The position numbers and the translations under genes were made by a program. A stretch of DNA of 64,000 bases from Eunapius fragilis (Eukaryota; Porifera; Demospongiae; Spongillida; Spongillidae), in contig OY811976.1 of the NCBI GenBank assembly GCA_963681505.1, positions 5,198,003 through 5,262,002 on the forward strand, given 5' to 3'. Below the pieces are notes generated by a model. The model saw only the letters and a program-made list of their open reading frames with translations. It did not search any database and had not been told where the DNA came from. Within the stretch, counting starts at the first letter, position 1; the number at the start of each line of letters is the position of its first letter. Shown here piece by piece: positions 8,291 to 57,215 of this stretch.

Positions 8291-9926
8291 ATGCACGGTA
8301 CTGCTGCAACACGAGACTTGTGCGCGTTTCGATGTCCATTCCCTCTGTGGATGCTACTTGTCTGCTTAACGCTTGCATCCTGCCAGCAAACATGGACGAC
8401 TCCTAACGAACACAACTACGGGTCCACCGACAACCGCATTACGAGACTGCCCAACTTCGTGTTTCTAATAACGGATGACCAGGAGCTGGTACCGGACGGG
8501 GCTAACCACGGCATGAGGTACACCGTCCCCATGATGCGAGAGCACGGTACCACCCTGCAAAACTTCTTCGCCAACGTTCCCATCTGCTGTCCCTCCCGGG
8601 CTACTTTGCTCACTGGGAGGTACGCCCACCATTGGTTCGTCCCCCGTGACGACGCCTGCATATACATGGACGTGGCCAGCCAGTCCTTTGCCAAGGCCAG
8701 TATGGGGGTGATCATGCAGGGCCACGGTTATACCACGGGTTGCTTCGGGAAGACGTTGAACCTAGAGATAGGGACCCCGTACTGCAACGAAACTACGGCG
8801 TCCGCGGTTCCGGGCTGGGACTCGTCCTTTGCTCTTTGCAACGAGTTCGAGTTCGTAGAAAACGTTTGGAACGTCAATGGAAGTATACGGAATACGACGG
8901 AATACTAGTCTCGTACCCAGACCCGCAGCTGTGGGAACCAGGGTCTGGGTACGAGACTAACGGAATACATGACATCAGTGATCGGCAACCAAAGTCTGAT
9001 GTTCATAGAGAGCAGCCTTCAAGCGGACAGGCCGTTCTTCGCATACATAGGGGTCCACGCCCCTCATTTACCCTCCTCACCTGCCCCGTGGTACAAGGAT
9101 GAGTTTCCCCACCTCATTGCTCCTCGTACCCCAAACTTCAACTTTGGTGGGTGTACACACCACTTCCTGGTAAGGAGCCAGCCTCCGCTTTCCAATGACA
9201 CCCAGGTAGCCATAGATGACCTATACAGAGACAGGCAACGCAGCCTGCTCTCAGTGGACGACATCATGGCTGAGGTCATCAAACTGTTAGAACGCTACGA
9301 CCAACTAGCCACCACCTACGTGATATGGACCAGCGACCATGGCTACCAGCTCGGTCAGTTCAGGCTCCCCCTAGAGAAGGAACAGCCCTACGAGCATATC
9401 ATACGGGTCCCCTTCTTCATCAGGGGGCCAGGCATCATGGAGGGTGCCAACCTGCCCTTTATGGCTAGTATGGTGGACGTCCTGCCCACTATCGCTGAGC
9501 TAGCTGGGATGGGTGGGGCTGGTGGCCCCTCCTACTCAATGGATGGACACTCCTTTGCAGGTGTCCTCTTAGGAGGCAGTTCTTCATTCAGGGAGAAACA
9601 CCTCAGAGTACTGGAGTGTACCCAGGAAGCCTTTCTTTGGCCACTTGATTGATATGGAGAATAATACCTTTGTGGGCGTTCGACTGCTCAATGCCACCCA
9701 TAGCTACCTCTATGTGGAGTACTATGCCCACAGACATGAACATCTCTTTGTGCATCCCGTAGAATGCGAACTGTTTGACCTGAACCTTGACCCATGGCAG
9801 ATGTGGAACCTTTGTGGTGCGCCCGAGGCCCAGGAGGAAGGAACCCTCAATACAGTCCTGAGGGAGCTCAGGGACTACCTCCACAGCCAGGTGAAGTGCT
9901 CTGGACAGCTGGAGTGTGTGTTGTGA
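8291..9926 (+). pseudogene. N-acetylglucosamine-6-sulfatase-like sulfatase, doubly disrupted
   Basis: The start at 8291 lies 10 bases after a splice-acceptor-like TTTATTACAG and opens a protein with an N-terminal hydrophobic signal segment. Motifs in order are FLITDDQ (metal-binding aspartates), CCPSRATLLTGRY (the CxPSR site whose cysteine becomes formylglycine), GKTLN and TSDHGYQLGQF. Motif order and the CCPSR context resemble animal GNS, which removes 6-sulfate from heparan/keratan sulfate in lysosomes. A 54-bp micro-transposon at 8906-8959 puts a TAG stop after residue 205. With its 9-bp duplication it adds exactly 63 nt, so the frame resumes. A second break, a frameshift near 9600-9615, separates the main domain from the C-terminal part (frame of 9645-9926, stop at 9924). 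The rest is well preserved, so inactivation looks recent, or the frameshift is an assembly error. Confidence 0.8.
8906..8959. mobile_element. 54-bp micro-MITE of the 10651-15808 transposon family
   Basis: The insert consists of TAGTCTCGTACCCAGACCC, a 16-bp centre containing CAGCTG, and the exact inverted copy of the 19-bp end. The same 19 bp end the large element at 10651-15808. It is flanked by the 9-bp direct repeat ACGGAATAC (8897-8905 and 8960-8968), the same duplication length as the large element. It lies in the coding exon of the sulfatase. It can only move by using a transposase supplied in trans. Confidence 0.95.
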
Positions 9927-10242: not shown

Positions 10243-10650
10243 ATATATATATACATATGGGGTCACGGTAGGTAGTTGGATAAATCACGTAACTACCGTA
10301 AAAAATTGTCTCCCAAAAAATTGTAACGTAATTTTTGACTGCCAGAGAGGATTGATTTGAGGCGATCGTTCGTTTGCGCTGGTTTTGAGTTTTGTTGTGC
10401 TTGCTATATATATTCTATAAAGTTAGCCCATAGCTTCTTTTAGCATTTGCTATTCGTTGTATACGGTGAAACGATTCGCATTAGTAAGTTGTGGGCGTGT
10501 CAAAAAGGGTACGGTTTGATGGTTATAGAATTTTGTAGCGCATTGAATGGGTTACATGAAATACATATGAAGGCATTAAGGACACCTAGATGCATTACTC
10601 ATTTAAATATGAGGCAATGCGCAGGGTGTTGTCTCGAAGCCTCCACGAAC

Positions 10651-10801
10651 TAGTCTCGTACCCAGACCCATGACGTCACAGCTGCGGATGGATTACATCA
10701 CCGCTACGCTCGGCAAGGCTCGTACCCAGACCCATGACGTCACAGCTGCGGATGGATTACATCACCGCTACGCTCGGCAAGGGTCTGGCAAACCGTACGG
10801 G
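10651..10801 (+). repeat. Left TIR with 64-bp tandem duplication
   Basis: The 64-bp unit 10655-10718 is repeated exactly at 10719-10782, followed by GGGTCTGGCAAACCGTACGGG split as GGGTCTGGCAA and ACCGTACGGG. Each unit contains the palindrome TGACGTCA (10671-10678, 10735-10742) followed by CAGCTG. The right TIR has a single copy. Duplication within one end may change transposase binding or promoter strength for the transposase gene that starts at 10907. Confidence 0.95.
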
Positions 10802-10906
10802 AAAAATCTGTGTTCGTGTTTATCATGAATTTAATTTAACGTAGCCTATTCACTAACCACTTCCGACCGTGAATTAACGCAATTTCTTTTTACTCGAAAT
10901 TTCAAC

Positions 10907-13900
10907 ATGTGGAGTCCATATCAATGTCGGTGCTGCGGGACGGTGGTTACCAACCATAGGAACCGAAGGGTGCTGCACTGTTACGCTGATGGCAACGAGG
11001 GTTCTTCCATTTATGGATATATGTTGCGTTTGGTTAGTACAGGAAACTTAAGTGCCAGAAATCGCGAACGCTTTGGAGAACTGGATATATCAGTAAAAGG
11101 TCTGGATAAGGTATACATATGTAAAGCCTGCTTCGTAGCTGTCGATAAAGCTATGAAACTTAATGAACAGCTTCGCAATTTGACTGTTACCGTGCAGACA
11201 GCAGAGAATGTCATACTTTCAATGTTGACAAACCTTTACGTTGGAGGAGATGAGACATTAAGTATTGAAGATCCACACGCTAATTCGCCTTGCACATCAA
11301 CAAGTGTTCCAAGACTTCTATATCCATTGCTTCATGAGAAAACCAAAAAGAAATCTCCAGATGTTGTTGTAAGTTCAATAATAGCTATCAAATATCTGGT
11401 AATGTTAGCAAATAATTTATTTTTAAGGTCACTGTCAAGTACAGAAAGGAAAGATCATATTCACTGAAAGGCACCCCACAGAGAGTCACCAAAAGCATTG
11501 TTCGTGGTAATAGGCAAAGTGCGCTAAAGCAATTACTTGGCACATGTTCTATGCAAAAGTTTGCTGCACATTATATTAGCAAATTCATTCAGAAAGAATT
11601 AAAGTTCATGTGTTCTAACCAATTAAAATCTATGCTGAGGGATCATTCTAAATTAGCATTGGCAAATTTTTCATGGGATTCAATTCTACTTGAACTGGAA
11701 AAGAGGTGCCCTTTGCTATTCACTGTTTTACGCAATTGTATACCTATATCTTCAAACCATTTACTGTGTGTAATCTTTTCAATTTTACTTAAAGGTTGTA
11801 ACTCACATGTGAATCTTATGCAGTTTATAGTTTCAATTTTGATGTACACTGGACATACAGGAAAACTGGTAAGTAAATTATGTTATGATCATGTATAATT
11901 GAACTCTATTGTTCATAACCTACTAGGCATTTACTAGGCTAAATAAGTTAGGATTGTGTATGTCACGGCAATCAACAGTAACACTGCTAGATGACATTGG
12001 CTATGAACATGATGAACTGGTTATTCAGTGGAGAAATTTCTTGTTTTCAAGAATCAATGTGCAAGCAGCACAGGTAAGTTACTTTGTCATGTGCATGTGC
12101 AAGAATACCACAATTTCATTTTTTGCAGTATGCAAAAACACACTGGATACAGCAGATTTGCGAAGATGATGATGAAACATCATCTGAAAGTTGCATGGAA
12201 ATTCCTTCACCAGTTACTTCACCTTCTCCACCACCTTTTTCTCCTTTATTACTGAACTGTGGTGAGTATGACACAGAAGAAACAGTTAGTTGTTCAACGG
12301 ATCATCAGTCAAGTATTGACAGTGAAGATGAACATGTTAATGCTGATCAAATGCCTGGACATGTGTCTGAAATAGATGAAACATTTGATGATTCAACAGA
12401 AGTACAATCACCTAACATAATGGAAGTTAAGGAATGTAGTCAGTCAGTGGATTGGAAGGGTTTCAAGATTGTAGGTGACAATTTGGATAAAAATTACAAA
12501 CCCAGGCATCAGACATTAACTCACCAAAATCAGTCTATGCATTTTTTTCAATCATTTGCAGTTATGGATCGCGTTAATCTATCAGAATACTCTGATATTC
12601 CACCAGTTCAACATATTTCTGAACAAATAATCAAGAGCACCTTCATTCCTTCTGATGACGAACAAATCATTCTCAGATCACATTTTGTTGTACTTATTGC
12701 TCGCGTATTAGTTGAATGTATCCCATGCTTCGCAAAGTTTAAAGACATAGTCCCTAAACATATAACTCATCAGCACTACTCAGAAATGTGCACAAAGTCA
12801 AAAGTGGTATGTAATATAATAAATACATATCTCAATGATTATACAAAGTTCCTTCTACCAGGTGCCACTTGGAGTACTACTAAAAAACGAAAACTTCTTG
12901 GATGAAATGTCTGACATTTTGGACCATCATAGTACCTATGTGCCCATGAAAGAAATTGTGGAAGAACAAGATGGAGATCATTTAAAAATGCACTATTTCC
13001 ATCATATTCTGTTTGGTGGGGATCAAGTAACAGCATCTCGTACAAGATCTGCAAAGAGAATGCGCCAAAATGCTGAACTTGGGAAAGCAAAACTGCAGGG
13101 CTTCATACCAATCATAGAGGATTGGCATGCCAAAGTAGTTCTATTAGAGGTGAAGACTTTGTTATGCAAGAGCATGATCATCTTAATGCCTGCAAATGTA
13201 CTTATCTAACACTCTTATTTTTATAGGTGATATGGAGCAGACTTTACACCAAAAGTACCAGCATGGAAAAAGGAACTTTGCTGCAGTTGAAAAATCTAAT
13301 TCATAGGACAAGTGTTCCAAGAGTCCCGAAAAACAATGTTCATGCTGCAGAAGATTTTTTGAATGTTGTTTTGAAAAGCCACATAATAGTTGCAGCTATG
13401 AAGCATTTTAGGTTGTGCACCCTTCAAGACTGTCCAGACCAAACATTTATTCCAGAAGACATATTGTTGCACACTGATGAGGAGAAATGGCAGATATTGT
13501 CATCAGAAATTGAAGGCATTATAGATAAGCATGTTGATTTCTCACTACTATCTACCAACAAAACAAGTAATATTGATGGAGTGCTAAACTATGCACGTCA
13601 TGTTCTTTCCCTAGGACTTCTCCACGCTGAATTCGATGATGCAATTCATGAAGGAGATGGTGTAAGAGTACTTCAGTGTTGGAAAATTTTCTTACCTTTA
13701 TTTAAATGTGCCAATCGTAAAAATTACGCTATTGAGTCCCTCAATTTACTATGGCAATTCCATATAGCACTTTCACCTAGGCAAGCCATGCAACTTATGT
13801 GGTCCAGGTTTATTAATACTCAAGGAAAGCCTGGTTGCAATTTACCTTGTGATTTACATATGGAACACTTAAATAAAGCTTGTAAAAGTGCCATTTCAAG

Positions 13901-14207
13901 TCTAGGTGCAAATCCTACTAAGGAGTCCATCAGTCGAGTGGGGAAGTGTATTGGACCATTGGTTGCAATTACAAGTCATTTTGATAGTGAGAGTAATATT
14001 GTTAATCTACATGGAAAGCATTCAGAAGCAGCAACACAGAAGGATATAGAAGTGATCGTAAAAGCTTTATTGCATGAAGATGTTTTTGGACAAAATGATG
14101 ATCGAAAACACAAATCTTTTCAGAAATTGCCCACCAGTGTCTATATGAATATGACTCCTGAAGCATTGCTGGTGTACATCAAGTCACAACTTGGTATTAG
14201 CTCATAG
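10907..14207 (+). CDS. Putative transposase with N-terminal zinc finger and DUF6589-like core
   Basis: Six exons (10907-11368, 11428-11868, 11927-12073, 12129-12806, 12862-13149, 13227-14207), all introns phase 0, GT-AG and 53-77 bp, give 998 aa without a break. Residues 5-70 hold a zinc-finger-like pair, CRCC and CKAC, like a ZAD-type finger. Residues ~360-450 are acidic and Ser/Pro-rich, probably disordered. From ~570 the core resembles proteins annotated DUF6589: FGGDQVTASRTRSA, IIEDWHAKVV, a GTLLQL segment and DLHMEHLNKACK. D630 (GGDQ), D663 (EDWH) and E885 (HMEH) are my candidates for a DD..E catalytic triad; this is inference. It is the only gene in the element besides the helicase, so it is the likely transposase acting on the TIRs. 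The start is the first ATG, 106 bp inside the left TIR. Confidence 0.8.
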
Positions 14208-14288
14208 GTTTGGAGTTTGTTGTACTGTACTGGATTACAATACATTGAGTTCATTCACTTTTATGTATCATGATGAAAGTAAAAAATA

Positions 14289-15636
14289 TTATGCACAACT
14301 TCCACACTTACAAACACGCTTACATACATCACAACATTTGCATCCATCAGCAGTTATGTTTAGCAATGATGCATCACAAAATTCAGAAAAAAGCACTTTT
14401 CTTCTGCACAAAGTTGTATTAGAACAATAATCTATCATAGCCTTTGAGGTGTGATGATTATCAGAAGGCGAGTAGTAGACAACTGACCAAGATTGATGGC
14501 CATCACGTCCTGCTCTACCAGTTTGTTGAACCTGGCTCTCAATATCCTCTGCAGGACCCCAGTGAATAATGTGTCTTACATTTGGGCAGTCAATTCCCAT
14601 ACCAAAAGCAGTTGTGGCCACAACTACTCTTAAAGTGCTGTCTGGGTCTGCAAATGACGATACAATGTGCTGCTTAACATAAGCATCAGTGCATCGTGTG
14701 TACATGTCAACAAGCCTGTATTTTGCTAAGTTTGGTTTCCCAGTAGGGTATGTGAAAGAAGTACCCAGAGCCTTTTCAAAGTGTTCATAAAAGGAAGCAA
14801 CATCCAACAGTTTACGACAGTACACCAAAACCCGTTCAGCTTTATTCTTGTATTGAAGAAGCTCACATGCAATTTTCTGAACAATGGCACTTATTTGTGG
14901 CTTCTCTTTAACTTCATAATATATATTACTTTTGAGTGGAGGTTCATAAATAATGGCAGGATCATCCATGCACAGCCGAGAAATGACTTGCTGCCTCGTA
15001 TCAGCTGTAGCTGTTGCTGTCAGTGCCATTATCCTTACATGGGAAGGCAGCAAACTTCTTATCATTCCTATATGCCTAAAATCCTTTCGAAACATATCAC
15101 CCCTGAAAAAAGAAGGTATAATCCGGCGTTATTGAAAAGCCTAATACTCACCATGTTTTCACGCAGTGAGCTTCATCCACAACCAGTGCTACTAAATCTT
15201 CTTGGTACTTAGAGGAGAGAAGCGCATCATGCCACTGTCTGCTTCGAAACAGTGCCTCTGGAGTTACAAACACCAATTGATATTCACCATCTGCGATTCT
15301 GCGCCTATCACTACTGGATACTTCCTCTTGATGGTTTCCAACATACTGTGTCAACAAGCCCAGTGCAGAATACTTGCTCACCTGATCCATCATCAGTGAT
15401 ACTAAAGGGGACACGCAGAGTACGATACATGTCCTCTCTTTCTTGCGCAAGCGGTCAAACACGTATGGCAGTAGAACATAGCACAACGTCTTCCCATATC
15501 CGGTTGGTAGTATTACGAAACAGTCGCGACCCTTCACAAACGTTTTTATTGCCTCCTCTTGTTTTTCCTTGAGCCTCTCCACTCCCAGCGCAAGCTTAGC
15601 GTACGTTATGGCATCCTCAACTATATCGCCGTCCAT
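14289..15636 (-). CDS. RecQ-family superfamily 2 DNA helicase of the transposon
   Basis: Two exons on the minus strand (15636-15152 and 15102-14289) flank a 49-bp GT-AG intron and give 432 aa. Motifs are complete: PTGYGKT (44-50, Walker A), DEAH (154-157, followed by CVKTWGDMFR as in RecQ), TATAT (190-194), ATTAFGMGID (324-333) and QQTGRAGRD (354-362). A cysteine-rich tail with CKCC, CKRVCKC and CGSC resembles the RecQ zinc-binding region. At 432 aa it lacks HRDC and other host C-terminal modules, as expected of a compact transposon enzyme. It would unwind DNA 3'-5' during excision, strand processing or repair of the donor site. It is convergent with the transposase gene. A TGACGTCA palindrome lies at 15670-15677, 34 bp upstream of the start. 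Confidence 0.9.
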
Positions 15637-15669
15637 TGTTATGATAACGTGACCCTATGTTTTGGGAAG

Positions 15670-15677
15670 TGACGTCA
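15670..15677. promoter_or_regulatory. CRE-like palindrome upstream of the helicase
   Basis: TGACGTCA, the consensus for CREB/ATF bZIP factors, lies 34 bp upstream of the helicase ATG. The same 8-mer is present in the right TIR (15781-15788) and twice in the left TIR. The repetition suggests transcription of both transposon genes could respond to a host bZIP factor; there is no direct evidence. Confidence 0.4.
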
Positions 15678-15721
15678 TAATTAAAAGCGCGCCTGCATTC
15701 CATCGAGTCACACACGTAAGA

Positions 15722-15808
15722 CCCGTACGGTTTGCCAGACCCTTGCCGAGCGTAGCGGTGATGTAATCCATCCGCAGCTGTGACGTCATGGGTCTGGGTA
15801 CGAGACTA
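15722..15808 (-). repeat. Right TIR, 87 bp
   Basis: Reverse complement of the left end, starting TAGTCTCGTACCCAGACCC. It is identical over 87 bp to the left TIR apart from the extra 64-bp unit there. It contains one TGACGTCA (15781-15788) next to a CAGCTG. Confidence 0.95.
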
Positions 15809-16207
15809 TCCACGAACGGCTTCACATGTTTTAAAGTACGCGATTATCGTGAAAGCTAATAGCTTTTATGACAGTGGGACGTCATACCTATTGGCCCTAA
15901 TGTTACTAAGATATCTGACCTTCTTTTACGTAGGTAGAGAGTGTTAGCGAGGTGTTCTATTTAAATCGCACCTTTTCGTTGCCGTGAGTTCTTTAGCTAG
16001 ATAATTTTCAGACTCTACTGCTTATGTAGTAACAGCGCCTTGCATATCACGAGATTCTGATTTAGCGCAGTGCTCTTATCAATCAAACCAATTTAATCAA
16101 AATTTGTCATGGCAACATGCAATGTTAGTTTATTATTCATGTTTTAATACTATGTTTATTAAACTCTATATTTTTATTCAACAGTTCTGTGTGTAGTTGC
16201 TTGGATA

Positions 16208-27500: not shown

Positions 27501-30500
27501 ACTGTTTAAATAGTCTTAAAAGTTGTGTTCTGGATGGATCCGTCCAATAGTATTGTTTTGCTATAATTACGAAGAGGTCCGGAACACGGATCAGTCTTTC
27601 AAACCGAGTAGTTGTCCCGCCAAGCACATATATTTAGAACATAATTATTGACGTCAGCTACAAGTCCCCAGACTAGATTTACGTGACATTACATTCGTCC
27701 CACCATTCTTTTAAGCTTGACCCCAAGCTTAGTTTCTCAATACTGGGTGCCGAACACGTTGAGGGTAGCGCCTTCCTACTTCAGCTTGCTGCTCTTGTTG
27801 AGGTGGAAGGATGAAGTGTTCGATGTGAGGTGCTTCCCAGTCAGCTACCGGTACACCATGTTGATCATGATCTTCACCATGCGTCTCTACCTCTCCTCTT
27901 ACAATACGTTGCTGGAGTCTGTTAACATGCACCACACGAGTCCTTGCTGTCGTGTTGTATTCAACTGCAACGTTTACTAGGGACAGCACCTCCTTCACAG
28001 TACATCCTCCTTCCCATCTCGCATCCAGCTTGCCAGCTGTTGGCACATGTAGCCAGACAGCATCTCCAACATTGAAGGTTCTGCTTTTAGTTGTGCTGTC
28101 ATAGAACGCTTTCTGCCGTTGTGCTTCCTGTGTGATATGGCACTCCACCAGGTCCCTCATCTCTGCTAATCTGACTGTCAGGGTATGTTCATAACTGTGT
28201 GGATCGTGACCCTTCCCATCATCTTCTGCTAGTGATGGCATGATTGGTAGCACAGGTTCTCTTCCTATTAGCAGTAAAAACGGGCTCAGGTGGGTTGATG
28301 TGTGACGAGCTGTACGATAGGCATAGAGCAGGAGTGGAAGCTGGCATTCCCAATCAGACTGCTGTTGGACATAGGCTCTTAACAGCTGCAACAGAGTTCT
28401 GTTAAGACGTTCCACCATACCATCTCCTTGTGGATGGTATGAAGTAGTTCGTGACTTGACAATGCCAAATGCTGCACAGGTTTTCTTCAAGATTGTGCTC
28501 TCAAAATTCCTTCCCTTGATCAGAGTGAAGGATCTCAGGGATACCAAAGCGAGAGAATATATCAATCAGTGCTTGAACTATCCTTTCCGCTGTTTGGTCA
28601 GGCATAGGTACTGCTTCAGCCCACTTGGTGAAATAATCTTGAAGTACCAGCAGATATTGATTGGAACTTCCAAAACATCAACAGCTAACATTTGCCAAGG
28701 TCGACCTATTGGAACATTTGTCATAGGTACTGCTAGTGGTATTGGAAGTTTCGATTGCTGACACACCTTACAACTCCGACAGTACAGCTCTGTTGCCTTT
28801 GCCATTCCAACCCAGTAGGCCATCCGCTTCAATATGTCTAGGGTCTTTTCAGTGCCTTGATGACCTGCACTTATGATGTCATGGCAGCTGTGAAGGGCCA
28901 CTTCCTGAAGTGAAGTGGGCATCACCGGAACAGTGATAGTTTCTTCTAATGGACCTGGAACAAATCTGCGACACAGGACACCATCAACCAGATGTAACTG
29001 CTTCAGTAGCTGAGAGTAACGCTTTAGTGGAAACTGCTTCCAGTTTGGCTTGGATGTACTGCTCCGTGATGTAAGGTGTTGGATTACTTGCTGCAGTACA
29101 GCATCCCTCTGTTGTTCTTCTTGGATCCTGCGCGTGGTTAGTTCTGGGGTTATGAGTGTAGCAGAGCACATTTCACTTGTTTCTACTTGTATTGCAGGTA
29201 CACGGGAGAGAGCGTCTGCATTGGCATTTGATGATCCTTGCCTGTATTTGTCCTCGAAATCAAACTCTTGAAGAGCAAGAGCCCATCTGCACAACCTGCC
29301 CTCCATCTTCTGAGCAGAAAGCCACTGTAGTGGCTGATGATCAGTGTGTAGGCTGAATGGTTGTCCCAGTAAGTAGTGCCTGAAGTGTTTGACTGCAAAG
29401 ACAACAGCCAGGCATTCCCTTTTGATGACACTGTACTGTCTTTCCGGTGGGGTTAGACTGCGGCTGGCATAAGCAATCACGTGGCCATCCTGCTCCAGCA
29501 CTGCTCCTATCCCCACTGCACTGGCATCTGTCTGTAGGGTGAATCCTATCTTGAAACAGGGATAGCATAAGACAGGCGCTTGAGTCAATGCATCTTTCAG
29601 CACCTGAAACGATTGCTGGCAGTTTTCCTCCCTATTGAACTCCACTGCTTTTTGTGTGAGATGATGAAGAGGAGCTGCAATATCTGCAAAGTTTTTAACA
29701 TATCGTCGATAGTATGATGCCAACCCCAGGAACTGCGGAACCTCTGTGACGTCTGTTGGTGTTGGCCAGTTCTGCACCACAGCGATATTGACTGTATCTG
29801 GAGCCATACCATTTTTGGAGAAGCTATGACCCAAGTATTGCACCTTGTCAAGGCCAATTTTACACTTTGAACCCCTCAATGTCAGGCCTGCCTCCGCTAA
29901 GCGATTGAACACAAGACGTAGATGGGATTGGTTAAGTTCCATATAACTGGAGTAAATGAGAACATCGTCTATGTAGCTGGTGACAAAAGAAAGGCCATGA
30001 AGCACTTTATCCATTAGCCGCTGAAAAGAACTCAGTCCACCGGTAACACCAAAGGGCATCCTACAAAACTCATACAGTCCCATGCCTGGGCCTGGACAAA
30101 ATGCTGTTTTCAAACGATATTCTTCTTGCACTGGAAACTGCCAGTAACCTGATTGCAGATCCAGTTTTGAGACTATGGAGGCCCCCGCAAGCCTGTCTTG
30201 TACTTCATCAGGTAGTGGAAGTGGATATGCATCTTTCATTGTCCTCTTGTTCAGCTCCCTGTAGTCGATGCAAAATATAAGTTCACCACTTTTCTTGGGC
30301 ATGTACACTGCGGGTGCTAGCCATGGACTGCTGCTCACTCTGATGATGTTGCGATCTAGCATCTCCTGCAATTGACGTTCTATTTCCTCTCTGTACTGGG
30401 CTGGTATGCGACGCGGAGGAACACGGACTGGAGGGTTGTTAGCTGCAGGAATGGTATGGTGAGCAAGATCTGTGAAACCAGGAACTGTTGAAAATAGTTG

Positions 30501-32203
30501 CCTGTACTTGTCAACCACGGCCTGCAGTTCTGCTGGGCATGATGGGATGTCATATGATGGCGTTTCACCAAATCTTGGTACAGCACATTCATCCACCCCG
30601 TCATTTTCCTCTGGGTTGCTCCTGGTAGAAACGGCATAGCACATATTGGCCTTGTCCTGCCTGCCAACTGTATGGATGACTTCCTTTCCAATTCGTAAGT
30701 ATACTAGGCTCTGATCAAAAACCACTGTGACAGCGTGCTTAGAAAGGAAGTCCACTCCCAGAATAACAGGCATTAACAAGTGTTCAGCTACCAAGAGTTC
30801 TTGTTCAGTTGTATAAGACCCCAATTGCACCATAAGCCTGACCATTCCAACTATACTCATCCCGTGTCCATCTGCTGTATGAAGTGACTTCTGATTAAAC
30901 ACGCCAAAGGAAGGTACGCCTTGTCTACTAAGGAAACGGATGAACCTGAATCTACCATAATTTTTACGTTGCTAGCATCCAGCTTTCCTTCAATGATGGG
31001 TACATGCTCACTCGAAACGGCAGTGATAAATTCTTGGGCCCCTAGACACGAGCGGAATGACCTGTGGCCCTTGAAGTGGTCATTCCCAGTCCATTTCCCT
31101 GATGCTGACAATCTCTTGCAACATGTCCAGGTTGATTGCAGCTGTAGCACACTGGCTGACGTCTTGGCTGTCTGCAGTTCCGCGATAGGTGTCCAGGGCG
31201 GTTACAATTATAGTATCTGACAGAAACAGAAGTCGGGGGCTGAACGGCAGCAGTAAATGTGTGTTCTTGAAGTTTCTCCATCAAGGTTGACATTTGCTCT
31301 GTGAGATACTGGACGCTGTCTTGCAAGGCTCGTACTTCAGGACACGTATCTGTGTCTGTGCCTGCGGCAACCGACACGCGGACTTCTCCACTGATACGGT
31401 TAATAGGAGCTTGGCTCCCGTAACTGCGGCATCGATGGTCGTGATGTCAGGATTTGTTCGCAAAACGCGACTGCATTCTTCAGGAACACCCGCTAAGAAT
31501 TGCTGGAACAGTATTTTGTTCTTGCTATCTTCTTCCAGTTCTGGCATAGCTGCATCTAGGAGTCGCTTGAGATGATGTAGATACATGTGAACCGTCTCGC
31601 CAGGGTGTAGTTTGCGCGATTGAAATTCAGCGAAAGCTGAGAACTCCGTCGACTTTAACGCGTTCGTGAGGGCTTGCTTCGTATTACGTATTTACGTGAC
31701 ATTACATAAGCTTACACCCTATTTCTAAGAATAACTGTATGTACGAACTAATTTTATGAATAAAAAGTAATGTTACAATTTGAATCAAAGATGTAATCAA
31801 ACTGCAATAAACAGGAGTGTGTTTCAATAGAAATATTATGTAAACCTCGCAGCTTTACTTATCCAAACATTCACGCACACTCTCTGGCATAGCCAAGTCC
31901 TGTACACAATATGTTAAATATAAGTACCCACCCGCTACATGATACTATCATAATGTTAAGGGTAGAGTAATTTCCTATTTAGTCCACCCACCTCTGGGTA
32001 GTATGGCACAAATACAGCACTGACAATGTTTCCTCCAACACCACTCAGAATGTAAATAAAACACGTTCTGCACCATCCAAGCCTCTTCTCAACGATGCGA
32101 AGAACAAAATAAGTGAACAGCATTGTGGGGATAATGTGCAAAATCCTAAACAAAGACGGAGTGGTATTATAAAAAGTGGGAGCCTTTATCCAATGCACTG
32201 TAG

Positions 32204-37035: not shown

Positions 37036-38427
37036 ATGTCGGAAGACGAAAATTTGACCAGAAAGAGAAGAGTCTGTAGTGGACATAAGACGATGGTAAG
37101 CCGAACCTTGATGCTTGTCAAGGAGGCATTAAAAACACCTGAGGCTAGTGTGTTAAAGCTCAAGCAGTATTTAAAGCTCCTTCATGACAAACTGTCCATC
37201 GCTGAAACCCTCAATTCAGAAATCCTTGACCTCATGGCAGTAGAAGACGAGATTACGGAGGAAATCGGACAGTCAGACATTTTTGAGAAACCGTTGAAGT
37301 ACATGTAGCTATTATCGACATCAAAGCAGCGCTAGCGATCGATGAACAAGCAAATGGACCAACATGTACATCACCAGTATCCCACGAGAGAGTGTCCGAG
37401 ACACAGAGGGAAACTGAACGTGATCCAGAACAACATTGAAGGATCCGTATGGGAGAATCCATCATCCTGATCTGCTACACCATCTCCATTGCTTGTTCCA
37501 TCTATCGCACAGTCTCAGAACCTGGAGCAGACTTCATCAAGACAAGATCAGACTGCTGTTAGCCAAGACTTCCCAAGATAACGCTTGAGAAGTTCAATGG
37601 TGACATAACCTCATGGACATCGCTCTGGGACTCCTTTGAGTCATCCATTCATCTCAATTCCAAGCTTACAGACATGTACTGGCGATATCAAGAAAGCATC
37701 CCTTATGATACATGTATCTGTAGCCACAGAAGACATAGATGTGTTCCGGTTCTTATGGGTAGATGATATCCACAGAGACCTGCCCCAGATGGTCGTGCTC
37801 CGATTCACAAGAGTTCTGTTTGGAGTCTCGCGTCCATTTCTCCTGAATGCAACGATAAGATATCACATCAATCCAGGATTTGCAGAGAAAATTTTACAGT
37901 CAATCTATGTTGATGACATTGTCAGCAAAGTGGACAACGTAAATCAAGCATACAATTGTACACCAAGGCAAAAGCATATACTACGGGGTGGTGGATTTAA
38001 CCTGAGCAAGCTAATATCAATTTCTAAACAGATCCAATGAACAATCTTTGAGGGAGACAATGGGACATATGCTGACAATATCCTAGGGGACAAGCAGACA
38101 ACTGTTGTACAAGACTACCAAAGGGTGCCAGGGGTAAACTAGAACCTAACTGAAGACCACTTGTACATGTATTTGACATCACACCACTGTTTTAACTCAT
38201 GAGACAATCTGAGCCAACCAAGAGAAAACATTATCAGCTTGGAATCCCGATGACCCTTTAGGAATAATCTCACCCGTGACTGTACAACTGAAGATATTTG
38301 CCCAAAAGCTCTGTGAAGCAAGGCTTGATTGGGATGAAACTGTATCAGGTGAGGTATTGCAGAGATGGATAAATTACAGAAGCAACCTTCTTGACCTAAA
38401 GTCAATTACTATTCCTAGATGTTACTT
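37036..38427 (+). pseudogene. BEL/Pao retrotransposon, internally deleted
   Basis: 37036-37308 encodes an N-terminal gag-like helix region starting MSEDENLTRKRR. 37570-37660 encodes LPKITLEKFNGDITSWTSL followed by WDSFESSIH, the BEL/Pao gag hallmark. It then jumps at about 37665 straight into RT: GDIKKASLMIHV, DVFRFLWVDD, RFTRVLFGVS and the catalytic IYVDDIV (37900-37920). 38250-38427 adds ISPVTVQLKIFAQKL and WDETVSGEVLQRW from the RT/RNase H connection. The protease and the RT N-terminus are missing, and frameshifts separate the parts. At about 38428 the sequence changes to the DIRS-like element. Confidence 0.8.
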
Positions 38428-38914
38428 CCAGCGCATTTGCAGAGATTTTGCCAGCTACATGTTGTTCAGGCAGCAGGCCGCCACGTCTAACACAGTAGAC
38501 TGGTCCCAACTGAACTCAACTTTGTATGCGGTGACGTTCCTGGCGCAGCAGGGGAATAGAACTCGGCCCTGCACCCTGTGTATGGAGTCGGACCATAGAG
38601 AGGATGAGTGTTCTCTCGGGTCAGATGACCACCCGATGTCGGTGAAGCGGGATGGTGCGGGTCATTTGAAGGAGTTTAACGGGCTGCGGCAGCAACAAGT
38701 GTGTTTTACTTGGAATGAAGGTAGGTGTTTTTGCAACGGCTGTCGTTTCCGTCATGTTTGTGCTCGTTGCCAAGGTGAACATCGGTTAATAGATTGTCGT
38801 CAGTTTCCGCTTAAGTATAGCGGTCGTGGGAGCGCCGTTGGTGGTTATCAGCGCGACAATGATGCTGGCTCCATGAGGGGATCGACGTCTCAAGGTCAAG
38901 TTCGTCGTCAGTAG
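38276..38914 (+). pseudogene. Chimeric frame: BEL/Pao RT tail fused to DIRS-like gag
   Basis: One open frame of 212 codons joins two elements. Residues 1-50 are BEL/Pao (WDETVSGEVLQRW, then ITIPRCYF) and the rest is a DIRS-type gag end with a cysteine/histidine array: CTLCMESDHREDEC, CFTWNEGRCFCNGCRFRHVC and CARCQGEHRLIDC. The junction is near 38428. It is a chance fusion created by insertion, not evidence of a functional protein. Confidence 0.7.
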
Positions 38915-39900: not shown

Positions 39901-39944
39901 TATATATATTTCTGTTTTACTTATAGTCTTGGATTAAATAGTGC

Positions 39945-41551
39945 ATGTCATGTGATGTTGCCTTGCATTGCTCTGTTGCAGTGATGGCATGTGTGGAGCG
40001 TGTTCAGGTTCTCACAGTGGGAGGAGAGTATGTTTATATGTCGGATCTCAACAGTATAGTGAGTTGTAAAGGCGACTCTGTTGGTCATGTTCCACGCGAC
40101 ATTTCATCCCCTCTGCGAGTGGATGCTTGGACAGAGGAGTTGCGCACTTTTCCGGACAAGGTTTTTGTCGACTTTATTGTGCACGGCATCATGAAGGGTT
40201 TCAGGATTGGTTACAAACGAGGTAGTGTACGTCTGGTTAGCGCGAATCGTAATATGTTGTCGGCAGAGTCGAACCCGATGGTGGTCGAGGATTATTTGAC
40301 GAAAGAGGTGCAAGCAGGCCGTATAGTGCCAGTGGTGGGAGAGGAGGGTATTCAGATTAGTCGGTTTGGTGTCATTCCTAAGTCAGGACAACTGGGAAAG
40401 TGGAGGCTTATCGTCGATTTGTCGTCACCAGAGGGAGGCAGTGTCAACGATGGTATCTCAAGTAACTGGTGTTCTCTTTCGTATGCGTCCATTGATGATG
40501 CCGCTAAGCTAGTCGTAGCTGTTAGTCGTGGTGCATTGTTGGCTAAGTTGGATATCGAGAGTGCTTACAGGATTGTGCCGGTACACCCGGACGATAGGCA
40601 CTTGCTGGGGATGCGGTGGAAGGGAACAATTTATGTCGACAAGGCCCTACCTTTTGGTTTGCGTTCGGCTCCCAAGTTATTTACTGCAGTGGCAGATGCA
40701 TTGGCTTGGATGATGCAGGGGTGTGGAGCATGTAAGGTAATTCACTACCTTGACGACTTTTTGTTTGTGGGCGAACTGGTATCTTCGTTATGTGCGAAAG
40801 CTCTTCAGGCATTTTTGCGGTTGTGCAGGCGCCTTGGGGTTCCGGTGGCGATGGGCAAATTGCAAGGCCCAGCTACGTCGTTGACTTTCTTGGGAATCGA
40901 AATTGACACTGAGGCGATGGAGTTGAGGTTACCGCGAGAAAAGTTGTCGAAACTAAAGGAGATGGTTAGTGCCTGGAAGGGGCGAAAGTAATGTACGAAG
41001 CGTGAATTACAGTCGTTGATTGGTCATCTTCAGCATGCATGTCGGGTCGTTCAATCAGGTAGGACGTTTCTGCGCAGAATGATCAATCTGTCGATGGTGG
41101 CAAAAGAGCTGCATCATCACCTTAGGTTGAATAAGGGTTTTCAATCTGATTTGCAGTGGTGGTGGATGTTTCTAGAGATATGGAATGGTGTATCCATGCT
41201 CAATAGTACCGCACAGCTGTAATGCTTACATCCGATGCATCAGGTTCGTGGGGTTGTGGTGAGTAGTTTATGTGTCCGTGGCCACCTAAGTGGGCTAAGG
41301 TGCATATCTCGGTGAAGGAGTTGTTTCCTTTAGTATTGGCATGCGCATTGTGGGGGCATCAGTGGAGAGGAAAAGTGGTGAGCTGCCTGTCGGATAACAC
41401 AGCAGAGGTGGCCATTCTCAGATCAGGTATTAGTCGGCAGGAGAGTGCGATGCACAGTATTACACAATATGGTAGATTGATTGCCCATTGTTGGTATGAA
41501 CCTGGACCAGATAAAGTTCACAAGCAACAGGTACTGTGGCAAGGAAGATAA
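39945..41551 (+). pseudogene. DIRS-type reverse transcriptase and RNase H
   Basis: Frame 39945-40991 reads PLRVDAWTEELRTFPD, GFRIGYKRGS, SRFGVIPKSGQLGKWRLIVD, LAKLDIESAYRIVPVHPDD, LPFGLRSAPKLF and the catalytic HYLDDFL, all typical of DIRS-group RT. After a TAA at 40989-40991 the frame continues as CTKRELQSLIGHLQHACRVV and DLQWWWMFLEIWNG. A second stop (41220) and third (about 41263) interrupt the RNase H, where LTSDASGSWGCG and LSDNTAEVAIL hold the acidic residues. At least three stops make it non-functional. Confidence 0.85.
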
Positions 41552-50297: not shown

Positions 50298-50589
50298 CAA
50301 GTAAATAAAAACATTCTCTAACGAGAAAGTTGGTGGGCATATAGGATTGACAATGTTGGTGTAAAAAGCACGGAAACAAGTGTGACAGAAATGTTACTGG
50401 AAAATTGAAATAGGCCTATATTTAGCCCATTTTCTCAGGCGTGCGCTGCCTAAATGTGACTGGGCTAAATATAGGCCTATTGGGCTATTGCATTATTTAA
50501 TCGTACACCCCCACAGAAGACAAGAATTAGTGTCCTGGGGGGCATGTCCAATGTTTGTCCAGGGGGGCTTGTGCCTCTCAATTTGTGTC

Positions 50590-52760
50590 CTGGGGTGAGC
50601 GTCCGGGGTACTGTAGAGGAACAGGTATGTGTCCTGGGGGGAGCGACGTTAGACGTCCGGGGTACTGTAGGGGAACAGGTGTGTGTCCTGGGGGTCCTGG
50701 AGGGAGCGACGTGAGCCGTCCGAGGTACTGTAGGGGTACAAGTGTGTGTCCTGGGGGGAGCGATGTGAGCCGTCCATAGGGGAACAGGTGTGTGTCCTGG
50801 GGGGAGTGACGTGAGCCATCCGGGGTACTGTAGGGGAACAGGTTTGTGTCCTGGGGGGAGTGACGTGAGCCGTCCGGGGTACTGTAGGGGAACAGGTGTG
50901 TGTCCTGGGGGGAGTGACGTGAGCCATCCGGGGTACTGTAGGGGAACAGGTTTGTGTCCTGGGGGGAGTGACGTGAGCCGTCCAGGGTACTGTAGGGGTA
51001 CAGGTGTTAGTCCTGGGGGGAGCGACGTGAGCCGTCCGGGGTACTGTAGGGGAACAGGTTTGTGTCCTGGGGGGAGTGACGTGAGCCGTCCAGGGTACTG
51101 TAGGGGAACAGGTGTGTGTCCTGGGGGGAGCGACGTGAGCCATCCGGGGTACTGTAGGGGAACAGGTTTGTGTCCTGGGGGGAGTGACGTGAGCCGTCCA
51201 GGGTACTGTAGGGGTACAGGTGTTAGTCCTGGGGGGAGCGACGTGAGCCGTCCGGGGTACTGTAGGGGAACAGGTTTGTGTCCTGGGGGGAGTGACGTGA
51301 GCCGTCCGGGGTACTGTAGGGGTACAGGTGTTAGTCCTGGGGGGAGCGACGTGAGCCGTCCGGGGTACTGTAGGGGAACAGGTTTGTGTCCTGGGGGGAG
51401 TGACGTGAGCCGTCCAGGGTACTGTAGGGGAACAGGTGTGTGTCCTGGGGGGAGCGACGTGAGCCGTCCGGGGTACTTTAGGGGTGTGTGTCCTGGGGGG
51501 AGAGACGTGAGCCATCCGGGGTACTGTAGAGGAACAGGTGTGTGTCCTGGGACGTGAGCCATCCGGGGTACTGTAGGGGAACAGGTGTGTGTCCTTTAAG
51601 GAGAGACGTGAGCCGTCCGGGGTACTGTAGGGGAACAGGTGTGTGTCCTGGGGGGAGCGACATGAGCCATCCGGGGTACTGTAGGGGAACAGGTTTGTGT
51701 CCTGGGGGGAGTGACGTGAGCCGTCCGGGGTACTGTAGGGGTACAGGTGTTAGTCCTGGGGGGAGTGATGTGAGCCGTCTGGGGTACTGTAGGGGAACAG
51801 GTGTGTGTCCTGGGGGGAGAGACGTGAGTCGTCCGGGGTACTGTAGAGGAACAGGTGTGTGTCCTGGGGGGAGAGACGTGAGCCATTCGGGGTACTGTAG
51901 AGGAACAGGTGTGTGTCCTGGGACGTGAGCCGTCCGGGGTACTGTAGGGGAACAGGTGTGTGTCCTTTAAGGAGAGACGTGAGCCGTCCGGGGTACTGTA
52001 GGGGAACAGGTGTGTGTCCTGGGGGGAGCGACGTGAGCCATCCGGGGTACTGTAGGGGTACAGGTGTTAGTCAGGGGGGGAGTGATGTGAGCCGTCTGGG
52101 GTACTGTAGGGGAACAGGTGTGTGTCCTGGGGGGAGAGACATGAGTCGTCCGGGGTACTGTAGAGGAACAGGTGTGTGTCCTGGGACGTGAGCCGTCCGG
52201 GGTACTGTAGAGGAACAGGTGTGTGTCCTTTTAGGAGAGACGTGAGCCGTCCGGGGTACTGTAGGGGTACAGGTGTGTGTCCTGTGGGGAGCGATGTGAG
52301 CTCTCCAGGGTACTGTAGGGGAACAGGTGTGTATCCTGGGGGGAGCGACGTGAACCGTCCGGGGTACTGTAGGGGAACAGGTGTGTGTCCTGGGACATGA
52401 GCAGTGGGGGGTACTGTAGGGGAACAGGTGTGTGTCCTGGGGGGAGCAACATGAGCTGTCCAGGGTATTGTAGGGTAACAGGTATGTGTCTTTTAAGGAG
52501 AGACGTGAGCCGTCCGGGGTACTGTATACATGTAGGTACAGGTGTGTGTCCTGGGGGGAGCAACATGAGCCGTCCGGGGTACTGTAGGGAAACAGGTGTG
52601 TGTCCTAGGGGGAGAGACGTGAGCTATACTGGGTACTGTAGGGTAACACGTTTTTGTCCTGGAGGGAGAGATGTGAGCAGTCCAGGTACTGTAGGGGAAT
52701 AGGTTTTGTCCTGGGGTGGGAGACGTGAGCCGTCCGGGGTACTGTATGGGAATAGGTATG
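50590..52760. repeat. 54-bp minisatellite
   Basis: About 40 units of GGGGTACTGTAGGGGAACAG, GTGTGTGTCCTGGGGGGAGC and GACGTGAGCCGTCC. Sub-types (GGTTTGTG, GGTGTTAG, CTTTAAGGAGAG) alternate in patterns, suggesting higher-order units. The period of 18 codons leaves long frames on both strands, which are by-products. Confidence 0.97.
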
Positions 52761-55419: not shown

Positions 55420-57215
55420 TACTGGAGGTGGTCATGTACTAGAGGTGGTGGTCATGTACTGGAGGTGGTCATGAGCATGTACTGGAGTTGGTCATGAACC
55501 TCACAAGATTCTATATCTATACATCTCAATCCCCAGAGATTTCATACATAGGGCTTCTAGTGTGGTTTTACTTAATTAAACACCTCCAGATCAGATTAAA
55601 GGTTGAATGTGTCTGTTGATGCTATCAGCTAAGGTCTCCTCTGGCTTATCAACACCTGGGCTGTGTACACAACCACATACAACATGTATGTGCTGCATTC
55701 CATTTCACTGGCCTCTCCTACATGCTCTCATGTCTCCACCAGGACATGCTCATGACCACCTCCAGTACATGCTCATGGCCACCTCCAGTAGATGACCATG
55801 ACCACCTCCAGTACATGCCCATGACCACCGCCAGTACATGACCATAACCACCTCCAGTACATGACCATGACCACCTCCAGTACATGACCACCTCCAGTAC
55901 ATGACCATGACCACCTCCAGTACATGACCATGACCACCTCCAGTACATGACCATGACCACCTCCAGTACATGCTCATGGCCACCTCCAGTAGATGACCAT
56001 GACCACCTCCAGTACATGCCCATGACCACCTCCAGTACATGCCCATGACCACCGCCAGTACATGACCATAACCACCTCCAGTACATGACCATGACCACCT
56101 CCAGTACATGACCATGACCACCTCCAGTACATGACCACCTCCAGTACATGACCATGACCACCTCCAGTACATGACCATGACCACCTCCAGTACATGACCA
56201 TGACCACCTCCAGTACATGCTCATGGCCACCTCCAGTAGATGACCATGACCACCTCCAGTACATGCCCATGACCACCTCCAGTACATGCCCATGACCACC
56301 GCCAGTACATGACCATGACCACCTCCAGTACATGACCATGACCACCTCCAGTAAATGCCCATGACCACCTCCAGTACATGACCATGACCACCTCCAGTAC
56401 ATGACCACCTCTAGTACATGACCACCTCCAGTACATGACCACCTCCAGTACATGCTCATGACCACCTCCAGTACATGACCATGACCACCTCCAGTACATG
56501 ACCATCTTCAGTTCATGCTCATGACCACCTCCAGTACATGCTCATGACCACCTCCAGTACATGACCATGACCACCTCCAGTACATGACCATGACCACCGC
56601 CAGTACATGACCATCTTCAGTTCATGCTCATGACCACCTCCAGTACATGCCCATGACCACCTCCAGTACATGACCATGACCACCTCCAGTGCATGACCAT
56701 AACCACCTCCAGTACATGCTCATGGCCACCTCCAGGACATGACCACCTCCAGTACATACTCATGACCACCTCCAGTACATGCCCATGACCACCTCCAGTA
56801 CACGCCCATGACCACCTCCAGTACATGACCATGACCACCTCCAGTACATGACCATGACCACCTCCAGTAAATGCCCATGACCACCTCCAGTACATGACCA
56901 CCTCCAGTACATGACCACATGACCACCTCCAGTACATGCCCATGACCACCTCCAGTACATGCTCATGACCACCTCCAGTAGATGACCACCTCCAGTACAT
57001 GACCACCTCCAGTACATACTCATGACCACCTCCAGTGCATGACCATGACCACCTCCAGTACATGACCATGACCACCTCCAGTACATGACCATGACCACCT
57101 CCAGTAAATGCCCATGACCACCTCCAGTACATGACCACCTCCAGTACATGACCACCTCCAGTACATGATCACCTCCAGTACATGCTCATGACCACCTCCA
57201 GTAAATGCCCATGAC
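55420..57215. repeat. 17/23-bp minisatellite
   Basis: Units CCACCTCCAGTACATGA (17 bp) and the same with CCATGA added (23 bp), inverted at 55420-55490 (GTACTGGAGGTGGTCATG) relative to 55740-57215. Blocks of about 190-240 bp recur (for example 55775-55990 and 55995-56235), showing higher-order duplication. The repetitive Trp/Gly/His frames on the minus strand are by-products. Confidence 0.95.

What the first reader, a model, noticed from the sequence alone, without database searches (positions are those of the whole stretch)
10651..15808. Apparently intact transposon encoding a spliced putative transposase and a RecQ-family helicase
Seen: identical 87-bp TIRs, perfect 9-bp target duplication TCCACGAAC, two convergent genes that splice without a single stop or frameshift (998 and 432 aa), complete helicase motifs I-VI that I could check, and candidate D630/D663/E885 in a DUF6589-like core. 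Known, from memory: a helicase-bearing Academ lineage (AcademH) exists. Inferred: this copy moved recently and may still be active, and the helicase aids excision or repair. How a RecQ helicase serves a cut-and-paste element is, as far as I know, not worked out.
Basis: partly seen in the sequence, partly recalled or inferred. Interest (0 to 1): 0.9.

Follow-up and report, generated by a model that had tools for sequence, protein, structure and literature searches.

The report
Recently moved jumping gene carrying helicase
This is a young, apparently intact copy of what looks like a known kind of animal jumping gene (AcademH type) that carries its own DNA-unwinding enzyme; its ends can fold into hairpins, which suggests a testable idea of what that enzyme may be for.

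Summary
The element at 10651-15808 is real: an insertion with an exact 9-bp duplication (TCCACGAAC), and 29 pattern matches in the same genome look like the site without it. It has two convergent spliced genes: 998 aa (DUF6589, E 3.5e-55) and 432 aa (RecQ family, over the NCBIfam cut-off). Five other full-length copies differ by 1, 2, 2, 1 and 9 substitutions over about 5,094 bp, so it moved recently. Correction: the left end is not a plain 87-bp TIR; its outer 64 bp are tandemly duplicated, unlike the five other copies. Testable features fit AcademH; the AcademH paper and Repbase were not available. Beyond the finding: 21 of 21 other DUF6589 loci examined carry the helicase, convergent. Most readable ends fold as hairpins just inside the tip (80-nt ends with z < -2: 31 of 36; internal windows 7 of 166), also where TIR sequences are unrelated. 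Best guess, not shown: the helicase acts on this structured DNA during transposition or donor repair. Rivals: inverted transposase-binding sites, gap-repair help. A new member of a known kind; the end structure is the interesting part.

The parts
10642..10650 (.). left copy of 9-bp target-site duplication TCCACGAAC
   Evidence: sequence; single copy in 29 pattern matches to the joined flanks
10651..10801 (+). left terminal region: 11-nt tip, outer 64-bp unit, tandem second unit joined to the rest of the TIR
   Evidence: repeats D1, I1, I2; the other five full-length copies lack the extra 64 bp
10662..10669 (+). outer motif CCAGACCC, 5' arm of the possible end hairpin (second copy at 10726-10733)
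10781..10788 (+). inner inverted motif GGGTCTGG, 3' arm of the possible left end hairpin
10907..11368 (+). transposase exon 1
11428..11868 (+). transposase exon 2
11927..12073 (+). transposase exon 3
12129..12806 (+). transposase exon 4 (holds the start of the DUF6589 match)
12862..13149 (+). transposase exon 5 (conserved GGD630 and D663-W-H)
13227..14207 (+). transposase exon 6 (rest of the DUF6589 match, E885, stop)
15152..15636 (-). RecQ-family helicase exon 1 (motifs I to II)
14289..15102 (-). RecQ-family helicase exon 2 (motifs III to VI, zinc-binding cysteines)
15722..15808 (-). right TIR, 87 bp; tip 15798-15808, hairpin arms 15790-15797 and 15735-15742
   Evidence: fold dG -16.5, z -3.7
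15809..15817 (.). right copy of 9-bp target-site duplication TCCACGAAC

Best explanation
An autonomous DNA transposon of AcademH type that inserted recently. Shown: the element holds a DUF6589 gene and a RecQ-family helicase gene, insertion duplicated 9 bp of target, and near-identical copies lie elsewhere in the genome. Inferred from family knowledge: the DUF6589 protein is a DDE-type transposase that joins the ends to a 9-bp staggered target cut. Inferred, most likely but unproven (about 0.4): the helicase works on the element's own structured DNA. The typical end is an 11-nt tip followed by an inverted motif (CCAGACCC...GGGTCTGG in this family) that can fold as a hairpin. A 3'-to-5' RecQ enzyme (polarity recalled) could open such ends for the transposase, or clear them during repair synthesis at the donor gap.
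For: Apparent empty sites. TSD of exactly 9 bp in 35 of 35 element pairs found in 60 loci; 11 of the 35 rows are one host repeat, leaving 24 others. Copies 1, 2, 2, 1 and 9 substitutions away. Helicase convergent with DUF6589 at 21 of 21 loci examined, though transposases fall to 27% identity between loci. Both genes constrained in the one deep pair measured (L082/L086, dN/dS 0.15 transposase, 0.13 helicase, dS 1.7 and 1.5). Distance matrices of 13 loci correlate (Mantel r 0.82, 0 of 9,999 permutations, on noisy alignments). Hairpin ends: 31 of 36 ends z < -2 against 7 of 166 internal windows; own half-hairpins pair better than swapped ones across 8 TIR classes (the true pairing alone of 40,320).
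Against: No activity was measured. Within 12 alignable TIRs covariation is not significant (36 of 500 shuffles reach the score). Without the 8-bp core, 4 of 14 ends show no further folding and 4 more are weak, the window's among them, so two inverted protein-binding sites would also fit. In the fixed 80-nt folds pairing starts at nt 12 in only 19 of 36 ends; in most others part of the tip pairs too. The window copy's own left end lost the tip-proximal hairpin through its tandem duplication (z +0.2), yet the copy has a good TSD; when the duplication arose is unknown. The classes and the trimmed ends were chosen after the motif was seen. L082/L086 carry 2 and 1 stops at counted codons.
Confidence: 0.6

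Rival explanations
1. The inverted motifs are paired transposase-binding sites that co-evolve with the protein; the DNA never needs to fold, and the hairpin says nothing about the helicase.
For: The 8-bp core carries all or most of the signal in 8 of 14 ends; alignable TIRs show almost no covariation.
Against: Spacing between the arms varies widely while the stem starts at nt 12 in 10 of 12 trimmed TIRs. Folding beyond the core is clear in 6 of 14 ends (z below -2; L073, L059, L077R strongest), and by the fold the stem of L084 runs 15 bp, though its inner part alone is not significant.
Confidence: 0.35
2. The helicase helps templated repair of the gap left at the donor site (BLM-like, synthesis-dependent strand annealing), so that a cut-and-paste element gains copies.
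For: Loss of BLM impairs gap repair after P-element excision in flies (PMC8951532, abstract and passages seen). Three TIR-only derivatives of this family with 9-bp TSDs (126, 122, 110 bp) end inside the TIRs on both sides, as aborted repair could give. No short doubled-TSD footprint (0-14 bp, exact) was found for a host repeat with 191 filled and 126 empty sites. L088 is unevenly diverged from L083, L084 and L085 (about 89-97% in the middle, 97-100% over most of the rest), which conversion could give; not pursued.
Against: Identity runs evenly along L070/L071 and L073/L074/L080. Empty and filled host repeats are probably descended from few originals, so missing footprints are weak evidence. 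Plain internal deletion explains the short elements too.
Confidence: 0.3
3. Transposition is replicative (copy-out or nick-and-copy) and the helicase drives the copying, as proposed for Helitrons (recalled).
For: No excision footprint found; helicase present at all 21 loci examined.
Against: A DDE-type core (by family knowledge), long TIRs and a fixed 9-bp TSD are usual for cut-and-paste; nothing here shows a copying intermediate.
Confidence: 0.15
4. The helicase is a passenger gene with no role in transposition.
For: Young copies show weaker constraint on the helicase (dN/dS 0.45-0.69 in five overlapping comparisons, and one of 2.55 on only 1 synonymous change) than on the transposase (0.26-0.43).
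Against: Present at 21 of 21 loci and constrained at depth in the one pair measured (0.13).
Confidence: 0.05
5. KolobokH-type element rather than AcademH.
For: KolobokH also encodes a RecQ helicase, and one rhodophyte Kolobok encodes it on the complementary strand (PMC9587614, passages seen).
Against: [quoted passage not shown] here there is a separate convergent gene, a DUF6589 match and a 9-bp TSD.
Confidence: 0.02

Closest known systems
AcademH DNA transposons (Kojima 2020, Mob DNA 11:15; paper not held, known here through passages of PMC10045372 and PMC10799480)
   Same: Transposase plus helicase in one element, 9-bp TSD, TIRs
   Different: Not compared by sequence with named AcademH families; hairpin ends and the large number of short relatives could not be checked against that paper. 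PMC10799480 (passages) says AcademH was found as low-copy in fungi.
Amphimedon queenslandica LOC109589693 (DUF6589 protein)
   Same: 40% identity over 98% of the region searched, residues 500-998
   Different: Its DNA, ends and any helicase neighbour were not available
KolobokH and other Kolobok lineages
   Same: DDE transposase with a RecQ helicase in some lineages (PMC9587614, passages)
   Different: Gene arrangement differs
KolobokP (PMC9587614, abstract and passages)
   Same: Terminal repeats that themselves carry inverted ends; short solo terminal elements occur (compare the 88-bp L055)
   Different: KolobokP has long direct repeats of about 450 or 660 bp and a His-Me finger nuclease; here the terminal repeats are inverted and the accessory gene is a helicase
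RecQ/BLM family helicases
   Same: RecQ family cut-off met (TIGR00614, 250.7 against 219.8 bits); best PDB match 1oyw, E 1.7e-46 (that it is E. coli RecQ is recalled)
   Different: 432 aa; Pfam shows no domain after the zinc-binding part, so no winged-helix or HRDC domain was seen

Membership tests
AcademH | Helicase gene inside the element | tested here: met
   RecQ family
AcademH | 9- or 10-bp TSD (PMC10045372, passage) | tested here: met
   TCCACGAAC exact; apparent empty sites; 4 of the 5 other full-length copies have 9-bp TSDs, L009 has none
AcademH | Academ-type transposase | not testable with these tools
   DUF6589 matched; that DUF6589 covers Academ transposases is recalled; no paper in the library names DUF6589; Repbase not available
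AcademH | Terminal inverted repeats | tested here: met
   left end modified by tandem duplication
AcademX | 3- or 4-bp TSD and nuclease (PMC10045372, passage) | tested here: not met
   9-bp TSD; no nuclease domain listed by Pfam at E up to 1, ResIII overlapping the helicase core
[quoted passage not shown]
   separate convergent gene on the other strand
RecQ helicase family | Curated family score | tested here: met
   TIGR00614 250.7 bits, cut-off 219.8
RecQ helicase family | Zinc-binding domain with four cysteines | tested here: met
   PF16124 27.4 bits, cut-off 25; C394, C416, C419, C422, matched to E. coli RecQ by recall

The most novel reading that the evidence does not exclude
AcademH ends are structured DNA: an 11-nt tip followed by a hairpin whose arms change together between lineages. 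The element keeps a RecQ helicase because these hairpins must be extruded or opened for the transposase to act. This would make AcademH a DDE transposon working on folded ends.
Probability: 0.25. Interest if true: 0.8.

Novelty: new member of a known kind. Interest (0 to 1): 0.5.

Why it matters
Why some transposons with a DDE transposase carry a RecQ helicase is, as far as I know, open; the passage I saw in PMC10045372 only relates the helicase to TSD length. This genome offers a young family with near-identical copies, apparent empty sites, and diverged families that keep the same gene pair (21 of 21 loci examined) and mostly foldable ends (31 of 36). If the hairpin reading holds, the helicase has an obvious substrate and the idea can be tested with short oligonucleotides.

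Tried and rejected
Query-anchored dN/dS suggested that L070 and L071 had swapped helicases; the DNA profile is even and I take the signal to be intron read-through, so those ratios were dropped and redone. The Mantel test used the same alignments and carries that noise. Structure prediction of P0001 with 8 sequences gave pLDDT 42 and was not used; no fold search was made. No DUF6589 relative was confirmed in IMG/VR (35 stretches matched a pattern, none by tblastn). A target-site motif is weak at best (69 of 2,000 shuffles as strong). An early alignment included L014, which holds an assembly gap and an internal deletion, and was redone without it. One search compared L010, L011 and L014 in the wrong orientation; their figures there were dropped. 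A first pair count used a mistyped structure and was repeated. A regex hint that each TIR of L015 is a full palindrome was wrong: the second hit is the inner inverted motif. Ends of L072 and L078 were not found.
Full report
What was checked. The window lies in a 219-Mb genome of 24 contigs. The element spans 10651-15808, flanked by TCCACGAAC on both sides. Splicing at GT..AG sites gives 998 and 432 aa without stops. The first protein matches DUF6589 (E 3.5e-55, residues 518-937); the second matches DEAD, Helicase_C, ResIII and RecQ_Zn_bind, passes the RecQ family cut-off and matches RecQ, RecQ5, BLM and WRN structures by sequence. The left end differs from the first report: its outer 64 bp are duplicated in tandem.

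Copies and age. Five further full-length copies were found: L009, L010, L011, L012, L013. Against the window copy they have 1, 2, 2, 1 and 9 substitutions, counted from the 14 variable gap-free columns (about 5,094 aligned bases; one search gives the same for L009, L012 and L013). All five lack the 64-bp duplication. L011 has a 20-bp deletion in the helicase; L013 has an 861-bp insertion in the transposase and a 4-bp insertion in the helicase. L009, L010 and L012 show no indel apart from the missing duplication; I did not translate each. Four of the five have exact 9-bp TSDs; L009 has none. L014 is an internally deleted copy next to an assembly gap. The DNA search scored only 40 of 947 candidates, so its count of relatives is a lower bound; the DUF6589 search lists the same six full-length loci (102 of 215 candidates scored).

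Insertion. A 30-letter pattern made from the two flanks with one TSD copy matches 29 places with up to 3 mismatches, none for the reversed control; 23 of the 29 hold the 9-mer unchanged, 6 with a change. I read this as the element sitting in a repeat with empty relatives, which supports insertion with a 9-bp duplication; the places were not fetched. For a short relative in another repeat, 126 empty and 191 filled places were counted with up to 2 mismatches, and no doubled TSD with 0-14 bp between was found, exact matches only. In 60 loci (L009-L068) a scan for duplications of 7-12 bp found 35 element pairs, all 35 with 9 bp; 11 of these rows belong to one host repeat, one of them a pairing across two neighbouring copies. 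Among the 21 larger loci scanned, 8 have a 9-bp TSD, L082 has 8 bp, the hits for L080 (poly-C) and L081 look spurious, and 10 gave none; some of those loci are cut by the fetched stretch.

Wider population. The 17-bp end pattern has 2,070 places with up to one mismatch (1,056 and 1,014; control 1 and 0); of the 100 listed nearly all read AGTCTCGTACCCAGACC. About 380 of these ends would belong to the 191 filled host repeats, if each has two intact ends (inference). DUF6589 gives 116 exon-level matches, all over the cut-off. I fetched 20 loci at 10 kb each: of the best 27 rows, those left out are five of the window family, one equal-scoring neighbour (C17:3214344) and one row with six stops (C1:12823873). 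With L015 this makes 21; all 21 encode the helicase convergent with the transposase. The remaining DUF6589 loci could not be fetched. L082 and L086, the only deep pair with usable dS, give dN/dS 0.15 for the transposase and 0.13 for the helicase, dS being 1.7 and 1.5, with 2 and 1 stops at counted codons. Young pairs give 0.26-0.43 for the transposase and 0.45-0.69 for the helicase, with one helicase outlier of 2.55 on a single synonymous change; the comparisons overlap.

End structure. In the helicase-bearing families whose ends I could read, an outer motif from about nt 12 is answered by an inner inverted motif: CCAGACCC with GGGTCTGG in most, CCAGGCCCTATTTTT with AAAAATAGGGCCTGG in L083/L084/L088, weaker or different pairs in L086, L075 and L077 left. 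Ends of L072 and L078 were not found. A non-autonomous end in L040 has CCAGGCCGTC with GACGGCCTGG. Twelve TIRs cut at the inner motif fold better than the mean of their dinucleotide shuffles (z -1.8 to -7.8; 11 of 12 at -3.1 or below), with the stem starting at nt 12 in 10 of 12; these were trimmed with the motif known. With fixed 80-nt ends, 31 of 36 have z below -2 (mean -3.9), against 7 of 166 internal windows of nine elements (mean 0.0); there pairing starts at nt 12 in 19 of 36, and part of the tip pairs in most others. The five exceptions are the window's left end, L077 left, both ends of L086 and L075 right. Many of the 36 ends are related, about a dozen families. Joining 5' and 3' halves of 8 unlike classes, the true pairing is the only one of 40,320 permutations to reach its score (mean -11.9 against -5.5 for swapped; own partner best in 5 of 8 rows and 6 of 8 columns); I picked these classes after seeing the motif. 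Among 113 distinct 90-nt ends in loci held, 49 have the complement of nt 12-19 further in, against a mean of 4.2 and maximum of 9 for shuffled cores. Of the 64 without it many are short palindromic elements without an inner part, but some longer non-autonomous ones (L037, L066) also lack it.

Limits of that result. In an alignment of 12 alignable TIRs covariation is not significant (36 of 500 shuffles reach it; one double change). With the core removed, 14 ends differ: 6 have z below -2 (L073, L059, L077R, L079, L081, L015), 4 are weak at -1.1 to -1.6 (WIN, L087, L071, L077L), and 4 show nothing (L084, L082, L040, L075). Paired binding sites remain a full rival. So does correction of near-palindromes by template switching, a mutational process that would also make arms match without function (recalled).

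Reading. I take the element as an AcademH-type transposon on gene content and TSD length; the superfamily assignment of its transposase rests on recall. The helicase looks like a long-term partner of the transposase, not a passenger. What it does is inference: it may open structured ends, or help repair of the donor gap as BLM does in flies (PMC8951532, abstract and passages). Three minimal derivatives made only of this family's TIRs (126, 122 and 110 bp, arms of 68/59, 62/62 and 62/49 bp identical to the TIR, all with 9-bp TSDs) fit aborted repair but also plain deletion. L088 is unevenly diverged from its relatives while two other groups are even; I did not follow that.

Host. The best named matches of the transposase are Amphimedon, Halichondria and Ephydatia, then oyster and mussel (8 matches in all), so the host is probably a demosponge; this is inference from a mobile gene and was not tested with host genes.

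Literature. AcademH appears in 7 papers of the library (listing), some unrelated; a search for Academ with sponge, transposon and superfamily found none, none names DUF6589, and a search on subterminal hairpins of DDE elements listed nothing on Academ by title (listing only). I found no description of hairpin ends in AcademH, but the defining paper could not be read, so I do not claim it is new in print.

Noticed in passing
window 10652-10779; L020 (C7:4722563-4722678); L019: Tandem duplication of the outer TIR unit with the same breakpoints (TAGT|CTCG and AGG|GTCTGG) in the window copy and in a copy of another family, L020 (86% alike over the end); L019 has a similar, more diverged one. Cause unknown.
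   Followed up: partly
L016, L017, L018: Elements made only of this family's TIRs (126, 122 and 110 bp; one a perfect palindrome), each with a 9-bp TSD.
   Followed up: yes
L055 (C1, 88 bp): An 88-bp element that looks like one TIR whose inner motif has become a second end, with 9-bp TSD.
   Followed up: no
L013, L031, L035, L040, L041, L044, L047, L048, L054, L065: A host repeat with a short palindromic element at one fixed site (TSD ACAAGACAT); flanks nearly identical, but the palindrome's centre differs between copies, some looking like mirror images by eye.
   Followed up: partly
L009 (C14:5646014-5651107): Near-identical full-length copy without a TSD, perhaps after recombination between copies.
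   Followed up: no
L088 against L083, L084, L085: Uneven divergence along the element (about 89-97% in the middle, mostly 97-100% elsewhere), as if mosaic.
   Followed up: no
window 28578-30971 (-) and 27729-28565 (-): Retroelement frame with reverse transcriptase, RNase H and integrase zinc-binding domains; the smaller frame next to it had no Pfam match.
   Followed up: partly
window 38213-38914 and 39942-40991 (+): Frames matching Pao retrotransposon peptidase and reverse transcriptase.
   Followed up: partly
window 8291-9652 (+): Two sulfatase-matching frames in the same phase separated by one stop; intron or broken gene not resolved.
   Followed up: no
window 50477-51749 and 55718-57168: Long repetitive frames that look like tandem repeat arrays; not analysed.
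   Followed up: no
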